This document shows, in pieces, positions 34,227-46,141 of a DNA stretch of 64,000 nucleotides (position 1 is the first letter of the stretch; each line of letters begins with the position of its first letter). The notes beneath the pieces were generated by a model. It did not search any database and was not told the DNA's origin. It saw only the letters and a program-made list of their open reading frames with translations. This DNA comes from Gemmatimonadaceae bacterium (GTDB taxonomy: Bacteria > Gemmatimonadota > Gemmatimonadetes > Gemmatimonadales > Gemmatimonadaceae): contig JADZDM010000021.1 of the NCBI GenBank assembly GCA_020851035.1, positions 372,001-436,000 on the forward strand, given 5' to 3'. A program made the translations under genes and the position numbers.

Positions 34227-37127
34227 TCAGCCGCGCCGCCCTGACCCAGTCCGCGCCTTCGCCTTCGCCTTCGCTTTCGCTTTCGCCTTCGATTTCGGTC
34301 TCGGTGCCGCCGTCGGCGGGCGTGCGACCCGACGCGACACGGACGCCTCCGTCTGGCGCACGCGCGCGTCCGGCGCCACCAGGTCGAGCCCGGCGAGCAG
34401 CGACTGCGCCAGCTCGGTGGCGTCGAGGGCCCCGGCCAGCCGCGCCGCGATGGAGCGCGCTCCCTCGAAGGCGAGTCGCGCCGCAGCGCGCTGCTTCTCG
34501 TGCAGCGCGATCGAGCCCCGCACGGCCTCGATCCGCCAGAGTAGCGGTGCAGCGCCCTGCCGCTGCGCCTCCGTTTCGGCCGCATCGAGTGCATCGACCG
34601 CCAGCGCGACATCACCGAGCGCAAGGTGCGCCTGCGCGCGGAGGAGCTGGGCGCGCGGGACCTTCCGGAACGCGTCGCGCGGCAGGAGCGCCAGGACCGC
34701 CGTGCCATCGTCGCGGGCCAGCGCATGCTCCGCCCGCGCGATGGCCAGCGCACGCGTGCCGAGGGTGTCGTCGGGGAAGGCGGTGTTGCCGTGCGGGCGT
34801 CGCACACTGTGGTCCACGATGTCGAGCACTGCCACCGCCTCGGTGCGCCGGCCCGCCCGCACCAGCGCGATGGCCAGCGGAGCCCCGGTCCAGCGCGTCC
34901 ACGTGGCCGAGGCGATCCCGCGCGCGATCTCGTGCGCCGCGTGGAGTTGCTCCACCGCATCGTCCAGCGCGCAGAGCTCGAGCGAGATCACGCCCAGCAC
35001 GCGCAGCGCACCACACTGCCACTCGGGATTCGCCAGGTCGCCGGCCATCGCGAGCGCCTCGCGCGCCAGCTGCAGCGCACGCGAGTACTCCCCGCGCCAG
35101 GCCAGGCAGTCCGCCGCGAGGTAGCGTCCCCGCACCTCGCCACCACGCCAGCCGATGCCGGTGGCGAGCGCAATGGCGCGCTCGTGCACCAGCAGCTCGC
35201 CCGCATGCCCGCTCACCGCCACCTCGGCCGCCGACGAGTGATGGCTCGGACCGCACACGGCGAGCATGGCCATCGCCCCGGCCACGCCGCGCCGGTCCGC
35301 CAGCTGCGTGTGCAGCACGATGCACCGCGCATACAGCTCGGCCGCCTCGATCGCGAACCCGGCGATGTGGTGCGCCATCGCCAGCAGCTCCACCGTCTCC
35401 GCCACGCGGCGCGTGTCACCGATGCGGTCGAAAAGTGCCAGCGCCTCCTGGTGATGCGGGATGCCGGAGGCAGGATCCTCGCGGCTCACGTACCAGGTGC
35501 CGATGCGGTTCAGGCTTCGGGCCACCAGCGCAGGATCCTCGATCGCGCGGGCCAGGGCCAGCGCGTCCCGCCGGTACTGGCCGGCGCGCTCGTAGTCGCG
35601 CGTCGCCCAGAGCCCGCCAAGGGCGTGCAGCGCAGCCCACAGCGCATGGCGGTCGCCGGTCGCGCGGGCCGTGTCCACCGACGCGGCAAAGTCGGTGTGG
35701 GCATCGTCGAACTGGCCGAGGGCCTCGTGCGCACGGGCGCGTGACGCGAGCACGGCGGCGGTTGGGGCGTCGTCGGCGCGGACGGTGGCACTGACGACGC
35801 GGTCGAGGTGGTGGAGCGTCTCGCGTGCAGCGCCCAGCGCCCACGCACGCTCCGCGGCATGCGCACTGCACCGGCGCGCCACACCCCAGTCGTTGCAGGC
35901 GTAGGCATGTGCCGCGAGCGCCACGTCCACGGCAGGGTCATCCTCGCCGGACCGCAGTTCCAGCGCTCGCGCGATCATCCGGTGCAGGACCAGCTCCTCG
36001 CGCCTGCCAAGCTGCGCGCGGAGGCCATCGCGGAGCAGCGCGTGCCGGAAGGCAAGGCGACCGTCGGGGAGCCGCATCGCGAGGTCAGTGTCGACGAGTT
36101 CCTGCACGCGCGCCGCCAGCGTCACGTCGTCATACCCCGTGATCGCCTGCAGCAGCGCCAGGTCGGGGCGGCGACCCGCCACCGCGGCCAGCAGCGCGAC
36201 GCGGCGGGCTCCATCGGTGAGCATCGCGACGCGCGGCGCGACGACATCGGCCGCGCTCCGTGGCACACGCGCCGTCTCGCCCAGCGTCCAGCGCCCGTCA
36301 TCGGCAACGAGGTCGCCGGTCAGCCGCAGTGCCGCCACCGCCTCGCGCACGAAGAACGGGTTCCCCGACGTGACGCGGTGCAGCGTGTCCGCCACCTGCG
36401 CATCGAGCGGCAGCGCATCACCGAGCATGGCCTCCACCAGCGCCCCGACCTCGCGGACGTCGAGTGCGTCGAGCGTGATCACGCGTGCGGACGGCGCACG
36501 CCGGAGCTCCCCCTTCAGCGCCGCGAGCGCGGGGCCCGCGTTACCGGCACGACAGGTGAGCACCAGCACCACCGGCATGCCCGCCACGTGGCGAGCGAGG
36601 TGTTGCACCAGCTCGAGGGTCGCCTCGTCGGCCCAGTGCACGTCTTCCAGCACCAGCAGCAGCGGCTCCGCCCGCGCCATCCCCTCGATCGCCGCACTGA
36701 GCGCGAGGCGCAGTCGGTGCCGGTCGTCCTCCGGGCCGAGTGAGGTCAGTGGCGCGGTGTCCGGGAAGAGGTGCCGCAGGCATGGGAAGAGGGTGACCAG
36801 GTCGGCCGCGGCCGGTGCGAACCCCTGTGCGGCGGCGGCCGGCGACCGGACGGCAGCGAGGGAGCTGACGAGGTCGTGGATGGGCGCGTACGGCTGCGCC
36901 TGGTCGGCGTCGAAGCAGGTGCCGGTGAGGGTGCGGAAGCCGCTCGCGGCGGCCTGCCCTGCGAGCGTTTCGACCAGTCGCGTCTTGCCGGAGCCGGCGT
37001 CCCCGCCGATCAGGAGCGTCGTGCCGACACCGTCGCACGCCGCCGGCGCGAGGGCGCTGGCGGCGGTGTCGAAGGCAGCCTGGCGTCCGGACAGTGGTGC
37101 GCAGGAGACGCTGGGTGCGGCAGGCAT
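34227..37127 (-). CDS. Large AAA-ATPase/TPR signalling protein with Lys/Ala tail (966 aa)
   Basis: Residues about 10-290 form a STAND/AAA_16-type ATPase: Walker A GGDAGSGKT (41-49) and Walker B LLLVLEDVHWAD, as in LuxR- and adenylate-cyclase-type regulators. From about residue 420 to 900 there are long helical repeats resembling TPRs. No helix-turn-helix, cyclase or kinase domain is attached, so output must go through a partner. The C-terminus is PKSKAKAKAKAKAKARTG, like a histone-H1 tail, which could bind nucleic acid or acidic surfaces. Start at 37127 gives MPAAPSVSCAPLSGRQ directly before the ATPase. The 280 nt upstream, facing the next gene, hold no gene. Confidence 0.85.
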   Translation of the reverse strand: MPAAPSVSCAPLSGRQAAFDTAASALAPAACDGVGTTLLIGGDAGSGKTRLVETLAGQAAASGFRTLTGTCFDADQAQPYAPIHDLVSSLAAVRSPAAAAQGFAPAAADLVTLFPCLRHLFPDTAPLTSLGPEDDRHRLRLALSAAIEGMARAEPLLLVLEDVHWADEATLELVQHLARHVAGMPVVLVLTCRAGNAGPALAALKGELRRAPSARVITLDALDVREVGALVEAMLGDALPLDAQVADTLHRVTSGNPFFVREAVAALRLTGDLVADDGRWTLGETARVPRSAADVVAPRVAMLTDGARRVALLAAVAGRRPDLALLQAITGYDDVTLAARVQELVDTDLAMRLPDGRLAFRHALLRDGLRAQLGRREELVLHRMIARALELRSGEDDPAVDVALAAHAYACNDWGVARRCSAHAAERAWALGAARETLHHLDRVVSATVRADDAPTAAVLASRARAHEALGQFDDAHTDFAASVDTARATGDRHALWAALHALGGLWATRDYERAGQYRRDALALARAIEDPALVARSLNRIGTWYVSREDPASGIPHHQEALALFDRIGDTRRVAETVELLAMAHHIAGFAIEAAELYARCIVLHTQLADRRGVAGAMAMLAVCGPSHHSSAAEVAVSGHAGELLVHERAIALATGIGWRGGEVRGRYLAADCLAWRGEYSRALQLAREALAMAGDLANPEWQCGALRVLGVISLELCALDDAVEQLHAAHEIARGIASATWTRWTGAPLAIALVRAGRRTEAVAVLDIVDHSVRRPHGNTAFPDDTLGTRALAIARAEHALARDDGTAVLALLPRDAFRKVPRAQLLRAQAHLALGDVALAVDALDAAETEAQRQGAAPLLWRIEAVRGSIALHEKQRAAARLAFEGARSIAARLAGALDATELAQSLLAGLDLVAPDARVRQTEASVSRRVARPPTAAPRPKSKAKAKAKAKAKARTGSGRRG
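34255..34296. repeat. Hexanucleotide repeat inside the AAA-TPR gene
   Basis: Seven consecutive 6-bp units of the form GCCTTC/GCTTTC/GATTTC encode the alternating Lys-Ala tail. Because the unit is 6 bp, slippage changes the tail by two residues and keeps the frame, so tail length may vary between strains. Confidence 0.85.
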
Positions 37128-37407
37128 GGCGAGGAACGGGCGGGGCGGGGAGCGTGGGGTGGCATGCGTGGACACGCCCGGACGTCCGGGCGGTCGCAGC
37201 CAGGCACCGGACTGACGACCGTGCCCCCGCCGACGTACCATCCCGCCGCGTGCCGTCCGCCGTCGCCGCGGCGGGCTGAGCCGACGGGCATCCCCGATGC
37301 GTGACACCGGCGGGCCGATCGGGCGCAGGTCGCCGCGGACTTCCGGCACCGGACCGTCCAGCCCGGGTAGGATGCAGCGGACAACACCTTCCCTCCGGGA
37401 GCCACCG

Positions 37408-38388
37408 ATGCGCATGCGCGCCGCCCGCCTCGCCGTCCCCGCCATCGCCCTCCTCTGCGCTGCCGCCCCCCTGATCGCGCAGACGGTGCCGATGCTCCGC
37501 GGCACCGTCCGGGACAGCACCGGCCGCGCGCTGCCGGATGTCATCGTCTCGTACAAGACCACGAAGACCACCTCCGACTCGGTCGGCCGGTTCCTGCTCG
37601 TGCCGGTGCCACTGGGACGGATCACCGTCCGGTTCGAGCGCGACGGCCTGCTGCTCGGCGAGATCGAGGCGAACGTGACCAGCGACACCACGCCCAGCGT
37701 GGTGGTCGAGGCAATACCGAACCCGACCGAACGACGGTCCCTGCTCGGCACCGTGGTCGACTCCAGCGGTGCACCGGTGCGAGACGCGACCATCGAGGTG
37801 GTGACCGCCCTGCTCGAGCAGCGCTCCGACTCGCTCGGCCGGTTCGCGTTCCGGAACCTGCCGCCACGGCGACACATCGTGCGGGTGCGCCGCGTGGGCT
37901 ACTCGCCGACCTTCCTCTTCGCCGACCTCACCGACAGCACCGCCACCCGCGCGCGCATCGTGGTGCGCCAGTTCGCGGGCCAGAACCTGGGGCTGGTGGT
38001 GGTGCGCGCCACGCGGATGCCGGTGCGCATGCGCGGCTTCCTGCAGCGTGCGGAGCGTCGCTCGGGGTGGGGGCGGATCATGACGGAGAAGGAGATCCTG
38101 GAACGGCACCCGCTGCAGACCACCGACCTGCTGCGCATGATCCCCGGCGTGCGCGTGAACTTCGACTCCCGCCGCTCGTCGATGGTGACGGGCCGCGGCG
38201 GGTGCCTGATGGGCGTGTTCATCAACGGCTTCCCCGCACCGCAGCTGAGCGGCATGGGGATCGACGACATGGTGAACACCCTCGACCTGGCCGGCATCGA
38301 GGTCTACAACGGGATCGGCGGCGTGCCGGCCGAGCTGACGATGGGACCGTCCAACCCCTGCGGCACGATCGGGATCTGGACGCGGTAG
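37408..38388 (+). CDS. Carboxypeptidase-regulatory-like protein with orphan TonB plug domain
   Basis: A 326-aa secreted protein with signal peptide ending at PLIAQT. Two carboxypeptidase-D-regulatory-like beta-sandwiches follow (LRGTVRDSTGRALPDVIVSY at about residue 30; LLGTVVDSSGAPVRDATIEV at about 110). A plug-like domain comes last (EKEILERHPLQTTDLLRMIPGVRV, GCLMGVFINGFPAP, IEVYNG). There is no beta-barrel after the plug, so it is not a complete TonB receptor. GGGAG precedes the ATG at 37408. Such barrel-less plug proteins are frequent in Gemmatimonadota by my recollection; the role is unknown. Confidence 0.82.
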   Translation: MRMRAARLAVPAIALLCAAAPLIAQTVPMLRGTVRDSTGRALPDVIVSYKTTKTTSDSVGRFLLVPVPLGRITVRFERDGLLLGEIEANVTSDTTPSVVVEAIPNPTERRSLLGTVVDSSGAPVRDATIEVVTALLEQRSDSLGRFAFRNLPPRRHIVRVRRVGYSPTFLFADLTDSTATRARIVVRQFAGQNLGLVVVRATRMPVRMRGFLQRAERRSGWGRIMTEKEILERHPLQTTDLLRMIPGVRVNFDSRRSSMVTGRGGCLMGVFINGFPAPQLSGMGIDDMVNTLDLAGIEVYNGIGGVPAELTMGPSNPCGTIGIWTR

Positions 38389-38511
38389 GGGCGGAGGCGA
38401 GGCGGCGTGCGTGGCGCAGGGCGGTAGCTTCCGGGGTTCGCGCACACCACGCAGGGGCCGCACCTCGCGCCACGCCACGTGCGACACGGCCTTCGCACCA
38501 CCCGCTCCCGC

Positions 38512-41500
38512 ATGCACGGCGTTCCCAACCTCTCCCCGGCCGACGCGGGCGCGCTCGCGGCGCAGCTCTACGGCCTGGCCGCCACCGCCACGCCGCTCCC
38601 CAGTGAGCGCGACCAGAACGTGATGCTGCTGGCCGGCGATGGCGCGCGGCACATCCTGAAGGTCGCCAACGCCGGTGAGGCGCGCGCGGTGCTCGAGGCG
38701 GAGTGTGCCGTGATGCAGCACCTCTCGCACACCGGCCTGACCCCGCGCGTGGTGCGCACGCTCACCGGTGACGAGATCGGCCACCACGACGGCCACATGG
38801 TCCGCCTGATCACGGCGTTGCCGGGCACGCCGCTTGGCGCCACCCGGTACCAGACCGCCAGCCTGCGGCAGGACATCGGCAGGGCGCTGGCCGCGGTGGA
38901 CGAGGCGCTCGCCTCCTTCGCGCACCCGGCGTTCCACCGCGACTTCCACTGGGACCTGGCCAACGCGGGGCGCGTGGTGCCGGACCTGCTCCCGCTGGTG
39001 TCCGATGCAGCACTGCGACGCCACATCGCGCACTTCACCGCGCTGCACGCCGCAGAGGTGGTGCCGCTGCTCCCGCAGCTCCGGCGCGGGATGATCCACT
39101 CCGACGCGAACGACTGGAACCTCCTCGTGGACGGGCGCGCGCAGCGCGTGACGGGGGTCATCGACTTCGGCGACATGGTTCACAGCCATGTGGTCAACGA
39201 CCTCGCGATCGCGATGGCCTACATCGCGCTGCAGTCGCCCGACGATCCGCTCGCGGCGGCCGCCGAGGTGGCGGCGGGCTACCATGCGGTACACCCGCTC
39301 ACCGAACCCGAGATCCGCGCGCTCTTCCCGCTGCTGGCCATGCGGCTCTGCACCAGTGCCTGCGTGGCCGCGAAGCAGTGGTCCGAGCGGCCGGATGAAG
39401 CGTACCTCGGCATCAGCCAGGGGCCGATCGCGCGCGTGCTGCCGCGCCTGGCTTCGATCCATCCGCGCTTCGCGCACTACCTGCTGCGCGATGCCTGCGG
39501 GCTGCCCCCCGTGCCACACGCACCGCAGGTGGTGCGATGGCTGGCGCGGCACCAGCCAGGCTTCGCACCGCTCCTCGGCGACGCGATGCGGGATGGTGGC
39601 CCGATCCCGCTCGACTTCAGCGTCGGGAGTGCCCTGCTCGACGGCGACCCCGCCGGCAACGCGCCCGTGCTGCTCGACGCGCGCATCCGCGCCCTGCTCG
39701 CGGCCAATGGTGCCGCATACGGCGTGGGCGGCTACGACGAGGCGCGGTTGATCTACCACTGGCCCGACGAGCCGGCGGCACCGGAACCACGGACGATCCA
39801 CCTCGGGATCGACCTGTCCACCGCGCCGGGCACGCCGCTCTTCGCCCCGCTGGATGGCGTCGTGCACGGGTTCGAGTTCGCCGACAGCCATCACGACTAC
39901 GGGCCGGTGGTCGTGCTCCGGCACGTCACGGACGACGCCACGCCGGTGGAGTTCTTCACCCTGTACGGTCACCTCACGCCCGACTCCCTCGACGGGCTGG
40001 TGATCGGTGGCACCGTCACGCGGGGCGCGGAGTTCGCGCGCATCGGCAGCGCACCGACGAACGGCGACTGGTGGTCGCACGTGCACGTGCAGGTGATCAC
40101 CGACATGCTCGACGTGCCATGCAACGTCAACGGCGCCTGCCGCGCGAGCCAGCGCCGCGTGTGGCACAGCCTCTGCCCGGACCCGAACCTGGTCCTGGGC
40201 CTCGCGCCGTGGATCGTCGCCCCCGCCGGCGACTCCACCGGCGAGATCGCTGCCCAGCGCCGCGAGCACGTCGGCGCGAACCTGAGCGTGTCGTACGGGG
40301 CCCGTCCGCTGCAGGCGGTGCGCGGCGTCATGCAGTACCTGTACGACGAGGACGGGCACCGCTTCATCGACGGCTACAACAACGTGGCACACGTGGGCCA
40401 CGCGAATCCGCGCGTCACGCAGGCGGTGGCCCGGCAGCTCGGCGTGCTCAACACCAACACCCGGTACCTCCAGTCGCAGCTCACGCACTACGCGACGGAG
40501 CTCACGGCACTCTTCCCGCCCGACCTCTGCACCTGCTACTTCACCGCATCGGGCAGCGAGGCGAACGAGCTGGCGCTGCGGCTCGCGCGGACGTACACCG
40601 GCGCGAAGGACCTGATCGTGATGGAGGCGGCCTACCACGGCCACACCACCACGCTGATCGACATCAGCCCCTACAAGCACGACGGTCCCGGCGGGCAGGG
40701 CGCACCGGACTGGGTGCACACGTCGCCCATCCCGGACACGTACCGCACACGCGGGATCACGGGGGATCCGGGGGCGTGGTTCGCGGCCCGGGTCGGTGAG
40801 GTGATCGACGGCATCCACGCCCGCGGGCGGCGGCTCTGCGGCTACATCGCGGAGACCTGTCCCAGCGTGGGCGGGCAGGTCATGCTGCCCGACGGATTCC
40901 TCGCGGACACCTATGCCCGCGTGCGCGCTGCCGGGGGGGTGTGCATCGCCGACGAGGTGCAGACGGGGTTCGGTCGCATCGGCACCCACTTCTGGGCCTT
41001 CGACGCCCACGGCGTCACGCCGGACATCGTGGTGCTCGGCAAGCCGATCGCGAACGGCTACCCGATGGGCGCGGTGATCACGACGCGCGCCATTGCCGCG
41101 CGGTTCGACAACGGCATGGAGTTCTTCAGCACCTTCGGTGGCAGCACCGCCGCCTGCGTGGCGGGGCTGGCCACGCTGCAGGAGACGAGGGACCGGCAAC
41201 TGCAGGCGAATGCCCGTCAGGTCGGCGCACACCTCCGCGCGTCCCTCGCCGCGCTGATGCCGGAATTCCCGCTCATCGGCGACGTTCGCGGCTCCGGGCT
41301 GTTCCTCGGCGTGGAGCTGGTGCGCGATCGCGGGACACTCGAGCCGGCGGCCAGCGAGGCGTCGTTCGTCGTGCACCGCATGCGCGAGCGCGGCGTGCTG
41401 GTCGGCACCGACGGGCCGCACCACAACGTGATCAAGATCCGCGGGCCGATGGTGCTCACACGCGCCGATGCCGACCACATCGTGAGCGCCATGCGGCAGG

Positions 41501-41529
41501 GCCTCCGCGAACTCGGTGCGCTGCGGTAG
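38512..41529 (+). CDS. Fusion: APH/HYKK-type kinase - M23 peptidase domain - class III aminotransferase
   Basis: One 1005-aa polypeptide with three domains. Residues 1-330: aminoglycoside/homoserine-kinase-like fold with HSDANDWN (H196-N203) and the Mg-binding D218 in GVIDFGDM. Residues about 420-560: an M23 (LytM) domain with zinc ligands H430 and D434 (HLGID) and H523/H525 (HVHV). Residues about 590-1005: class III PLP aminotransferase with K844 in LGKPIANGYPMG. Kinase plus AGXT2L-like lyase acting in sequence is known for 5-hydroxylysine and phosphoethanolamine catabolism (HYKK, AGXT2L1/2), so it probably phosphorylates an amino alcohol and then eliminates phosphate. The role of the intact M23 domain is unclear. 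All active-site residues I checked are present. Confidence 0.9.
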   Translation: MHGVPNLSPADAGALAAQLYGLAATATPLPSERDQNVMLLAGDGARHILKVANAGEARAVLEAECAVMQHLSHTGLTPRVVRTLTGDEIGHHDGHMVRLITALPGTPLGATRYQTASLRQDIGRALAAVDEALASFAHPAFHRDFHWDLANAGRVVPDLLPLVSDAALRRHIAHFTALHAAEVVPLLPQLRRGMIHSDANDWNLLVDGRAQRVTGVIDFGDMVHSHVVNDLAIAMAYIALQSPDDPLAAAAEVAAGYHAVHPLTEPEIRALFPLLAMRLCTSACVAAKQWSERPDEAYLGISQGPIARVLPRLASIHPRFAHYLLRDACGLPPVPHAPQVVRWLARHQPGFAPLLGDAMRDGGPIPLDFSVGSALLDGDPAGNAPVLLDARIRALLAANGAAYGVGGYDEARLIYHWPDEPAAPEPRTIHLGIDLSTAPGTPLFAPLDGVVHGFEFADSHHDYGPVVVLRHVTDDATPVEFFTLYGHLTPDSLDGLVIGGTVTRGAEFARIGSAPTNGDWWSHVHVQVITDMLDVPCNVNGACRASQRRVWHSLCPDPNLVLGLAPWIVAPAGDSTGEIAAQRREHVGANLSVSYGARPLQAVRGVMQYLYDEDGHRFIDGYNNVAHVGHANPRVTQAVARQLGVLNTNTRYLQSQLTHYATELTALFPPDLCTCYFTASGSEANELALRLARTYTGAKDLIVMEAAYHGHTTTLIDISPYKHDGPGGQGAPDWVHTSPIPDTYRTRGITGDPGAWFAARVGEVIDGIHARGRRLCGYIAETCPSVGGQVMLPDGFLADTYARVRAAGGVCIADEVQTGFGRIGTHFWAFDAHGVTPDIVVLGKPIANGYPMGAVITTRAIAARFDNGMEFFSTFGGSTAACVAGLATLQETRDRQLQANARQVGAHLRASLAALMPEFPLIGDVRGSGLFLGVELVRDRGTLEPAASEASFVVHRMRERGVLVGTDGPHHNVIKIRGPMVLTRADADHIVSAMRQGLRELGALR

Positions 41530-42643: not shown

Positions 42644-44320
42644 CTACTGCCGACAGGGGGCGTTCGGGTCCGTCTTTGGCTTGTCGAGCCGTGGCCGATC
42701 CGCCCGCGTCGCCAGTGAAATCGCGGCATCCTTCACGAACGTCGCCACACGCGCCAGCGCATCGTAGTCGATGTACTGTGCCTCGTCGGTGACCTGGTGG
42801 TAGTCCATGTGCTCGCCCCGTGAGAACACCGCCGCCGGGATGCCGTAGCGCGCATACGAGTAGTGATCAGCGCGGCAGTAGTACTGGAGCGGATGGTTCG
42901 GTGCGTCGAACGTCATGTTGAACACGAACGGCTGCGGTTGTTTCGCATTGGCGGCCGCCAGCACGTCGCCGAACTCGGTGCTCAGCCGTCGCAGCCCGAT
43001 CGCCTCCAGGTACGTCGGGCCGGCATCCGGGAGGTCGTGCACACTGCCGCGGCCGATCATGTCCATGTCGATCTCGCCGATGATCGAGTCGCGGGCGACG
43101 GTCGGATGGTCCGTGAACCACCGCGAGCCGAGCAGTCCGAACTCCTCGGCGGTGTGCGAGACGAACAGGATCGAGCGGCGCAGGCGCGGTCCATGGCTCA
43201 GCAACTCGGCGATCTCCAGCAGGGCGACGGTGCCGGTGCCGTCATCGTCAGCGCCGTTGCGGATCGAGTCGGGGCGTGCGGTGGGACGGATGGCGCGCAG
43301 CGAGTCGAGGATCTGCTTCACGCGCCGCGCCTCCTCCGGCGTGGCATCGCGCGCCGGCGAATCGGCACCCATCGGTCGCACCACCGCGTTGAACGCGCGC
43401 AGTGAGTCGTGGTCGACGGGATTGTGGTCGAATCCGACGTGATCGTTGTGCGACGTGAGTGACACGAACTGCCCGTTGACGCCCGGGTCGGAGCCCGGCA
43501 GCACCGCGACCACGTTGCGCGCGGTGAACTCCAGCGGAAACACACCCACGCGCATGGCGCCGCGCAGCGTGCGGCCCAGGGTGCCCGGTGTGGCCTCATC
43601 CAGCGCACGACCAAGCAGCCTGGCGGCGAAGGCGTTCGTCACCAGCGCCATCGTGGGCACGTCACGCCAGGTCGTATCGAGCACCAGGTTGCCGGTGAGA
43701 TACGCGGCGGCGGACGATGCGCCAGCCGCGTCCAGTTCCGACACGAAGATCGTCGCCGCGCCCGCGAATCGCGGGGCGAGTCGCACGGCGTTGAGGTCGG
43801 TGCGGCGCGTGGCCACCGTGCGCTGGGACACCGGGATCACGCTGAAGAGCAGTGCCTTGCCCTGAGCCGTTGCCGCATCGATCCAGGTGGACGGATCCGA
43901 GGCAAGGCCGGCGTAGACCACCTGGCGCCCATCGATGTCGCGGCTGCGCGCGTTGCCCGGTGATGGCGCATAGTCGGTGCCCAGCTTCGCCGCGTAGCCG
44001 TCCACCCGGATCGTGTCACGCCGGTCGGCGGTGCGTCGCCAGAACGGCACCACCTGGAACCAGCCGCCATCGTCGCCGGCGGGTCGTAGACCGAGGCGCG
44101 CGAACTCCGAGGCGATGTAGGCCGTGGCCTTGTAGTTGCCGGCGTCACCGGGGGCGCGGCCCATCATCGAGTCGTGCGCGATGGCGAAGAGGCGGGTGCG
44201 GAGGTCGGCCGCGCTCAGCGCCGACGATGTCGCGAGCCCCGCCCCAGCGTCGTTGCGCGCCACCAGCGACGGCGTGCATGCAGCAAGCAGGACGAACGGA
44301 ACGAGTCGCCGAATGTGCAT
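42644..44320 (-). CDS. M28-family zinc metallopeptidase lipoprotein
   Basis: A 558-aa exopeptidase. MHIRRLVPFVLLAAC is a lipoprotein signal. The catalytic part carries M28 features: SLTSHNDHVGFD, NGADDDGTGTVALLEIAELL, the catalytic pair in SHTAEEFGLLGSRWF, IGEIDMDMIGRG and YYCRADHYSYARYGIPA. An inserted PA-like domain lies between about residues 130 and 260. It removes N-terminal residues from peptides in the periplasm or outside. It follows the M1 gene with only 1 nt between stop and start, so the two peptidases form an operon. Confidence 0.93.
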   Translation of the reverse strand: MHIRRLVPFVLLAACTPSLVARNDAGAGLATSSALSAADLRTRLFAIAHDSMMGRAPGDAGNYKATAYIASEFARLGLRPAGDDGGWFQVVPFWRRTADRRDTIRVDGYAAKLGTDYAPSPGNARSRDIDGRQVVYAGLASDPSTWIDAATAQGKALLFSVIPVSQRTVATRRTDLNAVRLAPRFAGAATIFVSELDAAGASSAAAYLTGNLVLDTTWRDVPTMALVTNAFAARLLGRALDEATPGTLGRTLRGAMRVGVFPLEFTARNVVAVLPGSDPGVNGQFVSLTSHNDHVGFDHNPVDHDSLRAFNAVVRPMGADSPARDATPEEARRVKQILDSLRAIRPTARPDSIRNGADDDGTGTVALLEIAELLSHGPRLRRSILFVSHTAEEFGLLGSRWFTDHPTVARDSIIGEIDMDMIGRGSVHDLPDAGPTYLEAIGLRRLSTEFGDVLAAANAKQPQPFVFNMTFDAPNHPLQYYCRADHYSYARYGIPAAVFSRGEHMDYHQVTDEAQYIDYDALARVATFVKDAAISLATRADRPRLDKPKTDPNAPCRQ

Positions 44321-44321
44321 G

Positions 44322-45959
44322 TCAGCGTGGGTCGAGGGACAGGGCCGCAAGCAGGCGGACCCTTGGGTCGAGCTCCAGCGAGCGTGGTGCGCTGCCGGCA
44401 GCAAACCTGAACTCGGCAGAGCGAGCCGACAGGTCGGCGCGCTCGATGCGCGTCGATCCATCCGCCATCGTGATGCCGACTTCGATCGGCAGCGCGTACT
44501 CGGCACCTGCCTGTGCCTGATGGAGCGTCAGCACGACTTGTTTCGCGCCGGCATCCCAGCGCCAGCGTCCGGTCACCGCTGGCACATCACCGCGCCGCAG
44601 CCACTGCTCGAAGAACGCGCCCAGGTCGCGGCCTGAGGCACGCTCCATCGCGGCGCGGAAGTCGGCGGTGGTGGCGTTGCGGTCGCGATGCCGTGCGTAG
44701 TAGTCGCGAATGCCCGCCCAGAAGCGATCGTCACCGATCTCGCTGCGCAGCATGTGCAGCGCCCAGCTTCCCTTCTGGTAGGTGATCGCGCTGGTGACCT
44801 GCGCCATGTCCGTCAGGTCGCGGTGGATCACCGGCCTGTCCGGCGTCTTCGCATCGACCTCGATCACCGTCTTCCGCGATGCGTGCAGTCCAGCCACGAA
44901 CTCGTCATGCCCGTACGCGTGCTCGATGAACAGCAGCGTGAAGTAGGTCGCGAAGCCTTCGCTGAGCCAGACGTCGTTCCAGTCACGCTCGGTGACGGCA
45001 TCGCCGAACCACTGGTGCGCGATCTCGTGGATCACCACGTTGCGCCACCGCACCGGGCGCGTGCCGGCCACGCTGCCGGCGCTGTAGAAGATGGCCGACG
45101 CTGCCTCCATGCCACCGCTGACGGAGTTCGACTGCACGTTCGCCAGCTTCTCGTACGAGAACGGGCCGACGTACTCGCTGTAGAACGCCAGCGCATCACG
45201 CGTGGGGACGGCGAAGTCGTGGAAACCGGCGTCGCGCTGCTTCGCGAACACCCACGTCTCGATCGGGATGCCGGCGTAGTCGTCCACCTGCTGCACCGCG
45301 AACGCTGCCACGCCAAGCGCGTAGAGCCAGGGCGAGATCGGCACCGACTCGCGCCAGACGGTGCGTCGCAGGCCGGCCGTGGTGTCGGTCGTCTCCATGC
45401 GCCGGCCGTTCGAGATCACCTGGTAGTGCGACGGTGCCAGCACCGACATCTCCATCGTCGCCTTGTCGGCGACGTGGTCGATGAGCGGGATCCAGTGGTG
45501 GCCCTTGTCCGGCCAGTTGTCGGAGAAGAAGGCGCGATCGCCAAGGGGCGTCGGCCTGATGTACAGCCCGTCGGCGGGGAGGCCAGCGTAGCGGAGGCGC
45601 ACCTCGATCACCTCGTCGCTGGCCAGGCTGCGCCCGAGCGTGATCGTGACGCGGTCGCCGGCGTGCTGGAAGTCGGCTGGTGCGCCCGCGACCGTGACGG
45701 CGCTCACCCGCATGCCCTTGCCTTGCCGCGCCGGCGTGATCGACGCGAGGTCGAACCAGACGCTGGCCAGGCCGGCGCCCACCGCGCGGACCCGGATGGT
45801 GGCGTCGCCGTGGATGCGGTCGGTGCTGTCAGCCAGCGTCAGCACGAAGCGGTAGTGCTCCACGTCGATCGGCTGGCGCGGGTACGGGTCGGCGCGCAGG
45901 GGCAGCGCGCAGAGGGACAAGCCCGCGAGCAGGCACCGAACGGCAATCCGCAGCGTCAT
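44322..45959 (-). CDS. M1-family aminopeptidase, secreted
   Basis: A 545-aa gluzincin. A signal peptide (MTLRIAVRCLLAGLSLCALPLRA) is followed by the N-terminal beta-saddle, the substrate-binding motif SGGMEAAS (GAMEN variant), the zinc site HEIAHQWFGDAVTERDWNDVWLSEGFATYF with the third ligand Glu in the second part, and a C-terminal beta domain. It lacks the long ERAP-type helical domain. Together with the adjacent M28 enzyme it should degrade extracellular peptides to amino acids. Start at 45959 chosen at the signal peptide. Confidence 0.94.
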   Translation of the reverse strand: MTLRIAVRCLLAGLSLCALPLRADPYPRQPIDVEHYRFVLTLADSTDRIHGDATIRVRAVGAGLASVWFDLASITPARQGKGMRVSAVTVAGAPADFQHAGDRVTITLGRSLASDEVIEVRLRYAGLPADGLYIRPTPLGDRAFFSDNWPDKGHHWIPLIDHVADKATMEMSVLAPSHYQVISNGRRMETTDTTAGLRRTVWRESVPISPWLYALGVAAFAVQQVDDYAGIPIETWVFAKQRDAGFHDFAVPTRDALAFYSEYVGPFSYEKLANVQSNSVSGGMEAASAIFYSAGSVAGTRPVRWRNVVIHEIAHQWFGDAVTERDWNDVWLSEGFATYFTLLFIEHAYGHDEFVAGLHASRKTVIEVDAKTPDRPVIHRDLTDMAQVTSAITYQKGSWALHMLRSEIGDDRFWAGIRDYYARHRDRNATTADFRAAMERASGRDLGAFFEQWLRRGDVPAVTGRWRWDAGAKQVVLTLHQAQAGAEYALPIEVGITMADGSTRIERADLSARSAEFRFAAGSAPRSLELDPRVRLLAALSLDPR

Positions 45960-46141
45960 GGTCGTCACGAACCGGGGTGGAGGAACGGCACCGGCGCCGG
46001 TGCATCGCCAGAGTCTAGCGCGGCGCACGCCCGGTCGTCAGGCGAATCGAGTATGCGTCCGCCGCGGCGACCATGGCCATTTTCGCGCGTGGCCAATCCC
46101 AACGATGCGGACTCGATGGCTCCCGCAGAGGGCCCGGCAAG

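What the first reader, a model, noticed from the sequence alone, without database searches (positions are those of the whole stretch)
38512..41529. Kinase - M23 peptidase - PLP lyase in one polypeptide
Two domains make chemical sense together: an APH/HYKK-type kinase and an AGXT2L-type PLP enzyme could phosphorylate an amino alcohol and then eliminate phosphate, as human hydroxylysine kinase and phospholyase do. Between them sits a M23 domain with its zinc ligands intact (H430, D434, H523/H525). M23 enzymes normally cut peptidoglycan outside the cytoplasm, but this protein has no signal peptide and the other two domains need cytoplasmic ATP and PLP. The M23 domain may release the substrate (an amino alcohol or hydroxylysine) from a peptide, or be a substrate-channelling insertion.
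Basis: partly seen in the sequence, partly recalled or inferred. Interest (0 to 1): 0.8.

Follow-up and report, generated by a model that had tools for sequence, protein, structure and literature searches.

The report
Three-in-one hydroxylysine-breakdown enzyme
This gene makes one long protein that joins a kinase, a zinc peptidase and a vitamin-B6 enzyme, and it most likely helps bacteria break down hydroxylysine, an amino acid typical of collagen; the three-part family was already catalogued, but why a peptidase sits in its middle is still open.

Summary
Window 38512-41529 (+) is one uninterrupted gene for APH kinase - M23 peptidase - class-III PLP phospholyase. The arrangement is not new: it scores above the cut-off of NCBIfam NF004799/PRK06148 ('hypothetical protein'), and all 80 best loci from a genome scan carry the three domains (14 phyla by record name, two Thorarchaeota loci included). 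The zinc ligands and both catalytic histidines of M23 are identical in 79 of 79 alignable homologues; its model matches lysostaphin/LytM. The PLP domain is closest to human ethanolamine-phosphate phospho-lyase. Gene context favours 5-hydroxylysine: a piperidine-6-carboxylate dehydrogenase lies nearby in three loci, and in four Bacteroidota loci the gene ends a hydroxyproline-catabolism operon, pointing to collagen. Against this, the window's own genome has neither partner gene over the cut-off. Eleven Gemmatimonadota loci carry kinase plus lyase without M23, so the core chemistry does not need it. In 15 genomes searched this M23 subfamily occurs only inside the fusion. Best reading: hydroxylysine kinase-phospholyase with a cytoplasmic M23 module that releases substrate from a peptide. 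The first two activities are strongly inferred; the peptidase role is plausible but untested.

The parts
38512..41529 (+). whole gene: APH kinase - M23 peptidase - class-III PLP phospholyase, 1005 aa from ATG (GTG 38479 is a possible earlier start)
   Evidence: open frame; NF004799/PRK06148 1136 bits, cut-off 1128; AlphaFold2 mean pLDDT 91.6, pTM 0.89
38587..39297 (+). APH-type kinase domain, residues 37-273; HSDANDWN motif at H207-N214 and D229
   Evidence: PF01636 99.6 bits, cut-off 23.2; D209 and N214 each in 78 of 80 homologues, D229 in 79 of 80; H207 varies (His 61, Tyr 16)
39796..40098 (+). Peptidase_M23 domain, residues 440-540
   Evidence: PF01551 37.7 bits, cut-off 28.7; domain model pLDDT 90.3, VIA-align Z 14.1 to lysostaphin, 13.6 to LytM
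39790..39813 (+). R438 (possible oxyanion Arg) and zinc ligands H441, D445 (HxxxD)
   Evidence: H441 and D445 identical in 79 of 79 alignable homologues, 1 of 80 rows a gap; R438 invariant in 57 rows; oxyanion role only by analogy with EnpA Arg21 (PMC9662197, passages)
39970..39972 (+). H498, catalytic His of the YGHL motif
   Evidence: identical in 79 of 79 alignable homologues
40078..40086 (+). HxH: H534 (catalytic) and H536 (zinc ligand)
   Evidence: identical in 79 of 79 alignable homologues
40309..41499 (+). class-III PLP domain (phospholyase type), residues 611-1007; K855 the expected Schiff-base lysine
   Evidence: PF00202 218 bits; best solved relatives 6tor human ethanolamine-phosphate phospho-lyase E 2.9e-122 and 5g4i A1RDF1 phospholyase E 2e-86; Z 58.5 and 52.3; K855 in 78 of 78 rows without a gap, 2 of 80 gaps

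Best explanation
A cytoplasmic catabolic enzyme for 5-hydroxylysine. Inferred order of work: the zinc M23 domain cuts a hydroxylysine-containing peptide (perhaps Gly-rich, collagen-derived) and frees the amino acid; the APH/HYKK-type domain phosphorylates the 5-hydroxyl with ATP; the PLP domain eliminates phosphate and ammonia to give 2-aminoadipate-6-semialdehyde (which cyclises to piperidine-6-carboxylate), and a separate dehydrogenase oxidises this to 2-aminoadipate. Shown here: the three intact domains, their active sites, their conservation and the gene context. Inferred: every catalytic step, the substrate, and above all the peptidase step. The confidence given is for the kinase-phospholyase reading with hydroxylysine as the family's main substrate; for the peptide-releasing role of M23 alone I would give about 0.45, and for hydroxylysine in the window's own organism about 0.55.
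For: Kinase Asp/Asn/Asp, the five M23 residues and the PLP lysine are near-invariant in 80 homologues. The PLP domain is closest to two characterised phospholyases in sequence (412.7 and 294 bits against 174 for the next) and, for the first of them, clearly in fold (Z 58.5; A1RDF1 52.3 is close to the next at 51.0). L-piperidine-6-carboxylate dehydrogenase lies about 1 kb away in two related Latescibacterota loci (L051; L058, whose protein is 90% identical to that of L051) and about 35 bases upstream on the same strand in a Planctomycetaceae locus (L066); L051 and L066 were tested against NF050084 (780 and 776 bits, cut-off 730), L066 also against antiquitin/ALDH7A1 structures. A fourth lies about 3 kb from an M23-less fusion in G104. 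In four Bacteroidota loci (L075, L083, L090, L110) the gene directly follows a 4-hydroxyproline epimerase gene (L090 tested: 575 bits, cut-off 376; the others 78-94% identical) and a D-amino-acid dehydrogenase gene, in three of them with a DHDPS-family gene further upstream; in L110 the gap to the dehydrogenase is 1 base. Hydroxyproline and hydroxylysine occur together in collagen (established knowledge). Across 296 Gemmatimonadota genomes kinase-lyase and this dehydrogenase co-occur: 51 both, 68 and 17 one only, 160 neither. M23 has a complete active site and its subfamily was found only inside the fusion (207.6 bits or more against 53.2 at most elsewhere, 15 genomes).
Against: The window's own genome has no piperidine-6-carboxylate dehydrogenase over the cut-off (best 380 bits; that protein scores higher in other aldehyde-dehydrogenase families, none over its cut-off) and no hydroxyproline epimerase. 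In the window's own family 0 of 32 kinase-lyase genomes have the dehydrogenase, and in family f7 0 of 16. The co-occurrence test ignores shared ancestry. Informative neighbours were recognised in 16 of the 80 loci: 3 with the dehydrogenase, 4 with hydroxyproline genes, 9 with an Lrp-type regulator; several loci have short flanks. Eleven loci manage without M23, so a peptide substrate is not obligatory. Some rhizobial members sit beside amino-acid ABC transporter genes, which suggests import of a free amino acid rather than a peptide. No assay was found, and the closest solved structure acts on ethanolamine phosphate; the human 5-phosphohydroxylysine enzyme is not among the 60 PDB hits shown, so the two specificities could not be told apart.
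Confidence: 0.65

Rival explanations
1. The fusion is an amino-alcohol kinase plus phospho-lyase for ethanolamine or 1-amino-2-propanol (the activities of EC 2.7.1.82 and EC 4.2.3.2, recalled), giving acetaldehyde or propionaldehyde; M23 is a side activity.
For: Closest solved relatives are the human ethanolamine-phosphate enzyme and the Arthrobacter phospholyase A1RDF1; the window's own family lacks the hydroxylysine-pathway dehydrogenase.
Against: Among the neighbours that were annotated I recognised piperidine-6-carboxylate dehydrogenase and hydroxyproline genes but no ethanolamine-pathway gene; ethanolamine genes were not searched for systematically. It gives M23 nothing to do.
Confidence: 0.22
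2. M23 is not a working peptidase but a zinc-bound spacer or docking domain that holds kinase and lyase together for substrate channelling.
For: Kinase and lyase also occur fused without it, or as neighbouring genes; the full-length model packs all three domains with pTM 0.89; M23 domains without a complete active site act in protein-protein binding (PMC9662197, passages).
Against: All five active-site residues are identical in 79 of 79 homologues across many phyla; a spacer would not need them.
Confidence: 0.15
3. M23 processes cytoplasmic peptidoglycan fragments and the kinase-lyase acts on an amino alcohol from cell-wall recycling.
For: The review of the family treats M23 enzymes chiefly as peptidoglycan hydrolases (PMC9662197, title and passages); the domain's closest folds are lysostaphin and LytM.
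Against: The fusion occurs in two Thorarchaeota loci (L055, L080), archaea being without murein (established knowledge); L055 has a Ras-family GTPase gene about 4.4 kb away, which fits an Asgard genome (recalled). The subfamily has its own signatures (DYGP, NGxWxPHLHFQ) and no standalone copy in 15 genomes.
Confidence: 0.07
4. The domains are joined only by an assembly or annotation error.
For: Many of the related records are metagenome-assembled genomes.
Against: The frame is open without a break in 79 of 80 loci, including isolate genomes of Mesorhizobium, Microvirga and Emticicia, and one gene is annotated over the match on a Sinorhizobium meliloti plasmid.
Confidence: 0.01

Closest known systems
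NCBIfam NF004799 / PRK06148 ('hypothetical protein' subfamily, 1015 positions)
   Same: full-length match over residues 14-1011, score above the curated cut-off (1136, cut-off 1128)
   Different: nothing structural seen; the family carries no function, which this report proposes
Human hydroxylysine kinase (HYKK/AGPHD1) and 5-phosphohydroxylysine phospho-lyase (PHYKPL/AGXT2L2), Veiga-da-Cunha et al. 2012 (title seen in reference lists; paper not held)
   Same: same pair of enzyme types and the same proposed chemistry; I recall from its abstract that bacterial bi- or tri-functional fusions were the clue
   Different: separate proteins without M23 (recalled); no direct sequence comparison was made here
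Human ethanolamine-phosphate phospho-lyase (6tor)
   Same: PLP domain fold and sequence, 44-45% identity, Z 58.5
   Different: a single-domain chain acting on phosphoethanolamine
Arthrobacter aurescens phospholyase A1RDF1 (5g4i)
   Same: bacterial phospholyase, 38% identity, Z 52.3
   Different: no kinase or M23 in the solved chain
M23 peptidases: lysostaphin, LytM, EnpA; pseudoalterin and LasA
   Same: fold and zinc site (Z 14.1 lysostaphin, 13.6 LytM, 12.7 EnpA; pseudoalterin 8.1, LasA 7.9)
   Different: those act outside the cytoplasm (established knowledge); here the domain is predicted cytoplasmic, with its own NGxWxPHLHFQ signature and fused between two metabolic enzymes

Membership tests
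NF004799 / PRK06148 three-domain family | full-length score over the curated cut-off | tested here: met
   1136 bits, cut-off 1128, residues 14-1011 of 1016
Peptidase family M23 | Pfam match over gathering score | tested here: met
   37.7 bits, cut-off 28.7
Peptidase family M23 | zinc motifs Hx3D and HxH, plus the further catalytic His | tested here: met
   H441, D445, H498, H534, H536 present and identical in 79 of 79 alignable homologues
Peptidase family M23 | M23 fold | tested here: met
   Z 14.1 lysostaphin, 13.6 LytM, 12.7 EnpA, on a predicted model
Peptidase family M23 | peptide-bond hydrolysis | not testable with these tools
   needs an assay
APH/HYKK-type kinase | PF01636 match and catalytic Asp, Asn and metal Asp | tested here: met
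   99.6 bits; D209, N214, D229 in 78, 78 and 79 of 80
APH/HYKK-type kinase | orthology to hydroxylysine kinase in particular | tested here: inconclusive
   the only two PDB sequence hits are homoserine kinase 2ppq (E 4e-4) and APH 4h05 (E 9e-4); no hydroxylysine kinase to compare with
Phospholyase clade of class-III PLP enzymes | closest to characterised phospholyases rather than to aminotransferases | tested here: met
   6tor and 5g4i rank first and second by sequence and fold
Phospholyase clade of class-III PLP enzymes | acts on 5-phosphohydroxylysine | not testable with these tools
   needs an assay; supported only by neighbouring genes
Hydroxylysine degradation pathway | piperidine-6-carboxylate dehydrogenase in the same genome | tested here: not met
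   not over cut-off in the window's genome; over cut-off in 51 of 119 kinase-lyase genomes of the phylum

The most novel reading that the evidence does not exclude
The central domain is a truly cytoplasmic M23 metallopeptidase dedicated to small hydroxylysine-containing (collagen-type) peptides, so that one polypeptide carries out peptide cleavage, phosphorylation and phosphate elimination in sequence: a recycling machine for animal-matrix amino acids spread over many bacterial phyla and some archaea, and a use of the lysostaphin fold in intermediary metabolism.
Probability: 0.3. Interest if true: 0.72.

Novelty: new member of a known kind. Interest (0 to 1): 0.47.

Why it matters
I found no description of this three-domain protein in the held papers (searches listed under Tried and rejected). 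An active-site-intact M23 peptidase inside a cytoplasmic metabolic enzyme would widen what this peptidoglycan-hydrolase fold is known to do, and the question can be settled with one purified protein and its zinc-site variants.

Tried and rejected
Assembly artefact: rejected. Degenerate M23: rejected, 79 of 79 active sites intact. A standalone partner M23 in genomes whose kinase-lyase lacks it: not found in 11 of 11; the best M23 there scores 45.5 bits against 207.6 or more for fused ones. Aldehyde dehydrogenase near the gene in L061: first grouped with the piperidine-6-carboxylate enzymes, rejected as methylmalonate-semialdehyde type. DHDPS-like genes near L073 and L079 are only 26-27% identical to the one in the hydroxyproline operons and were not counted; the one beside L078 was not counted either. 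A shared neighbour for the M23-less forms: not found among the ones scanned; a permease (L125), a sodium symporter (L128), an MFS protein (L135), an amidohydrolase (L126) and an Xaa-Pro aminopeptidase (L133) were seen.

Literature: ten searches listed no paper that I recognised as describing the three-domain protein; this does not show that none exists. Passages only were seen of PMC12138971, PMC13406643, PMC8154272 and PMC9662197. Veiga-da-Cunha et al. 2012 is not held and its content is recalled. PMC12138971 lists it in its references, next to its gene-fusion references; that it is cited for the fusion is my inference from that order.

Limits: no coordinate file of the models was found in the Python box, so distances between the three active sites were not measured. 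The fold lists for the whole model are filled by the PLP domain, so the kinase fold was not tested separately. The 80 loci are the best full-length matches, which favours three-domain forms. Neighbour clustering used the 70 of 80 loci of at least 6000 bases, and the printed list stopped at 45 clusters; the output was cut in the middle. The match list was cut short, and fragments at contig ends were assigned by hand; two unclear genomes (G295, G191) were dropped before the counts. For the tree, 127 of 134 rows passed a filter for length and stops and one of these was dropped by a drop list, leaving 126; it was built by the quick method and many forks are weak.
Full report
What is there. Window 38512-41529 (+) is a single gene of 1005 codons from ATG (the frame is open from a GTG at 38479). 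Numbers below use the 1016-aa frame. Pfam places an APH kinase at 37-273, Peptidase_M23 at 440-540 and Aminotran_3 at 611-1007. The whole length scores 1136 bits against NCBIfam NF004799/PRK06148, over its cut-off of 1128, and 701 bits against the related NF004800/PRK06149, below its cut-off of 973. The arrangement is therefore a catalogued family without a function. AlphaFold2 with 57 aligned sequences gives mean pLDDT 91.6 and pTM 0.89 for the full protein.

Distribution. All 80 carry all three domains (in which 111 of 133 examined loci had all three). In 79 the frame is unbroken over the match; in L117 it breaks inside the PLP part. By record name they come from Gemmatimonadota, Acidobacteriota, Chloroflexota, Bacteroidota, Planctomycetota, Pseudomonadota, Latescibacterota, Thermodesulfobacteriota, Armatimonadota and others, 14 phyla in all, with two Thorarchaeota loci. 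One archaeal locus (L055) is from a 2.58-Mb record titled chromosome and has a Ras-family GTPase gene about 4.4 kb away. Most records are metagenome-assembled, but isolates of Mesorhizobium, Microvirga, Emticicia and Oscillochloris and a Sinorhizobium meliloti plasmid also carry it. Within the window's phylum 64 of 298 genomes have a match over the family cut-off.

Active sites. In the alignment of the 80 homologues, M23 residues H441, D445, H498, H534 and H536 are identical in 79 of 79 rows that have a letter; I take the one gap to be L073, whose row I extended in the wrong frame (29 aa). Kinase D209, N214 and D229 are kept in 78, 78 and 79 of 80 (H207 varies, His 61 and Tyr 16), and PLP Lys K855 in 78 of 78 rows without a gap. 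The M23 domain modelled alone (pLDDT 90.3) matches lysostaphin at Z 14.1 (rmsd 2.6, 125 residues) and LytM at 13.6; pseudoalterin and LasA lie at 8.1 and 7.9. A review lists LasA as cutting Gly-Gly/Tyr/Leu/Phe bonds and pseudoalterin as an elastin-degrading enzyme (PMC9662197, passages), so the fold can handle animal-matrix proteins. Family-specific invariants include E-x-R-x-x-Y before the domain, R438 and N-x-x-W with the following HxH (the Gly after the Asn is nearly invariant). R438 stands three residues before the first zinc ligand; the review describes an Arg (EnpA Arg21) in an oxyanion role, and the equivalence with R438 is my inference. The PLP domain is nearest to human ethanolamine-phosphate phospho-lyase (E 2.9e-122, Z 58.5) and to Arthrobacter phospholyase A1RDF1 (E 2e-86, Z 52.3), ahead of dialkylglycine decarboxylase and aminotransferases (174 bits or less, Z 51 or less).

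M23 can be absent. In the phylum survey (298 genomes) some matches covered only the PLP part. Fetching 17 such or related regions showed six fused kinase-lyases without M23 (L125-L130) and five loci with neighbouring kinase and lyase genes without M23 (L131-L135); L136 lies near a contig end and shows only the PLP part, L137 (with M23) and L138 are contig-edge pieces from one genome, and L139-L141 are standalone PLP relatives. In the PLP tree the eleven fall in about five places among three-domain rows by my reading, though many forks are weak, so M23 was probably lost more than once; repeated gain is not excluded. A profile of the fused M23 scores 207.6 bits or more for the four fused copies tested and at most 53.2 for every other M23 listed in 15 genomes; in the 11 M23-less genomes the best is 45.5. 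The subfamily thus exists, as far as seen, only inside this enzyme.

Substrate clues. Neighbour clustering (70 of the 80 loci), a search of all 80 with named neighbours and family searches gave two informative contexts. First, L-piperidine-6-carboxylate dehydrogenase (NF050084, over cut-off in L051 and L066; L058 by 90% identity to L051) lies about 1 kb from the gene in L051 and L058 (Latescibacterota, one lineage) and about 35 bases upstream on the same strand in L066 (Planctomycetaceae). It also lies about 3 kb from the M23-less fusion in G104. This enzyme uses the expected product of 5-phosphohydroxylysine elimination. Second, in four Bacteroidota loci the fusion follows a 4-hydroxyproline epimerase gene and a D-amino-acid dehydrogenase gene, with a DHDPS-family gene further upstream in three of the four (in L075 the contig ends before that point). 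That is the layout of hydroxyproline breakdown (recalled pathway knowledge), and hydroxyproline and hydroxylysine are the two hydroxylated amino acids typical of collagen. These four loci form one clade of the tree and count as one lineage. In nine alphaproteobacterial loci of the 80 an Lrp/AsnC-type regulator gene lies beside the fusion, and four of these have an amino-acid binding-protein gene downstream.

Evidence against, in full. Across 296 Gemmatimonadota genomes kinase-lyase and the dehydrogenase co-occur (51 both, 68 kinase-lyase only, 17 dehydrogenase only, 160 neither; Fisher p about 5e-11, which ignores ancestry). Within the four families tabulated the picture is mixed: with against without kinase-lyase, f5 46 of 53 against 10 of 19, f2 5 of 15 against 2 of 49, but f7 0 of 16 against 2 of 6, and the window's own family f1 0 of 32 against 0 of 71. 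The window's genome has no dehydrogenase over the cut-off (best 380 bits, and that protein scores higher in other aldehyde-dehydrogenase families) and no hydroxyproline epimerase. The window's neighbours (a CarboxypepD_reg protein, a polysaccharide deacetylase, M28 and M1 peptidases, a rhomboid and an AAA/TPR protein) suggest no common pathway. Rhizobial members lie beside amino-acid transporter genes, which fits import of a free amino acid. So hydroxylysine is supported for the family and only by extension for this member.

Verdict on mechanism. The kinase-then-eliminate reaction is very likely. Hydroxylysine is the best-supported substrate; ethanolamine-type amino alcohols remain the chief rival. 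M23 is most simply a working zinc hydrolase that supplies substrate from a peptide: its active site is strictly kept, it is predicted cytoplasmic, it is dispensable for the core chemistry and it is tied to the fusion. No computation here tests its activity. Because the architecture is catalogued, and because I recall (paper not held) that bacterial bi- and tri-functional fusions were the clue for the human enzymes in 2012, I class this as a new member of a known kind.

Noticed in passing
window 42644-46028 (-): Peptidase M28 gene and peptidase M1 gene next to each other, just beyond a polysaccharide deacetylase gene downstream of the fusion.
   Followed up: partly
window 34227-37877 (-): Large AAA_16 ATPase with a TPR match (1216-aa frame), possibly a regulator.
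   Followed up: no
L139, L140, L141 (three Gemmatimonadota): Standalone PLP relatives (about 40% identical to the fusion's PLP domain) each have an aldehyde dehydrogenase gene, about 28% identical to the piperidine-6-carboxylate enzyme, within a few kb.
   Followed up: partly
L051:13156-14025 and L058:8167-9036: A conserved 289-aa protein that looks like a PhyH-type dioxygenase (by eye only) lies between the fusion and the piperidine-6-carboxylate dehydrogenase in both Latescibacterota loci.
   Followed up: no
L117 (Lewinella MAG): The fusion's frame is broken inside the PLP part (793-aa frame, remainder in another frame).
   Followed up: no
L144 (Sinorhizobium meliloti CP050561.1, 1155562-1174489): The fusion follows substrate-binding and permease genes of an amino-acid ABC transporter and an SDR gene; annotated only as 'aminotransferase class III-fold pyridoxal phosphate-dependent enzyme'.
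   Followed up: partly
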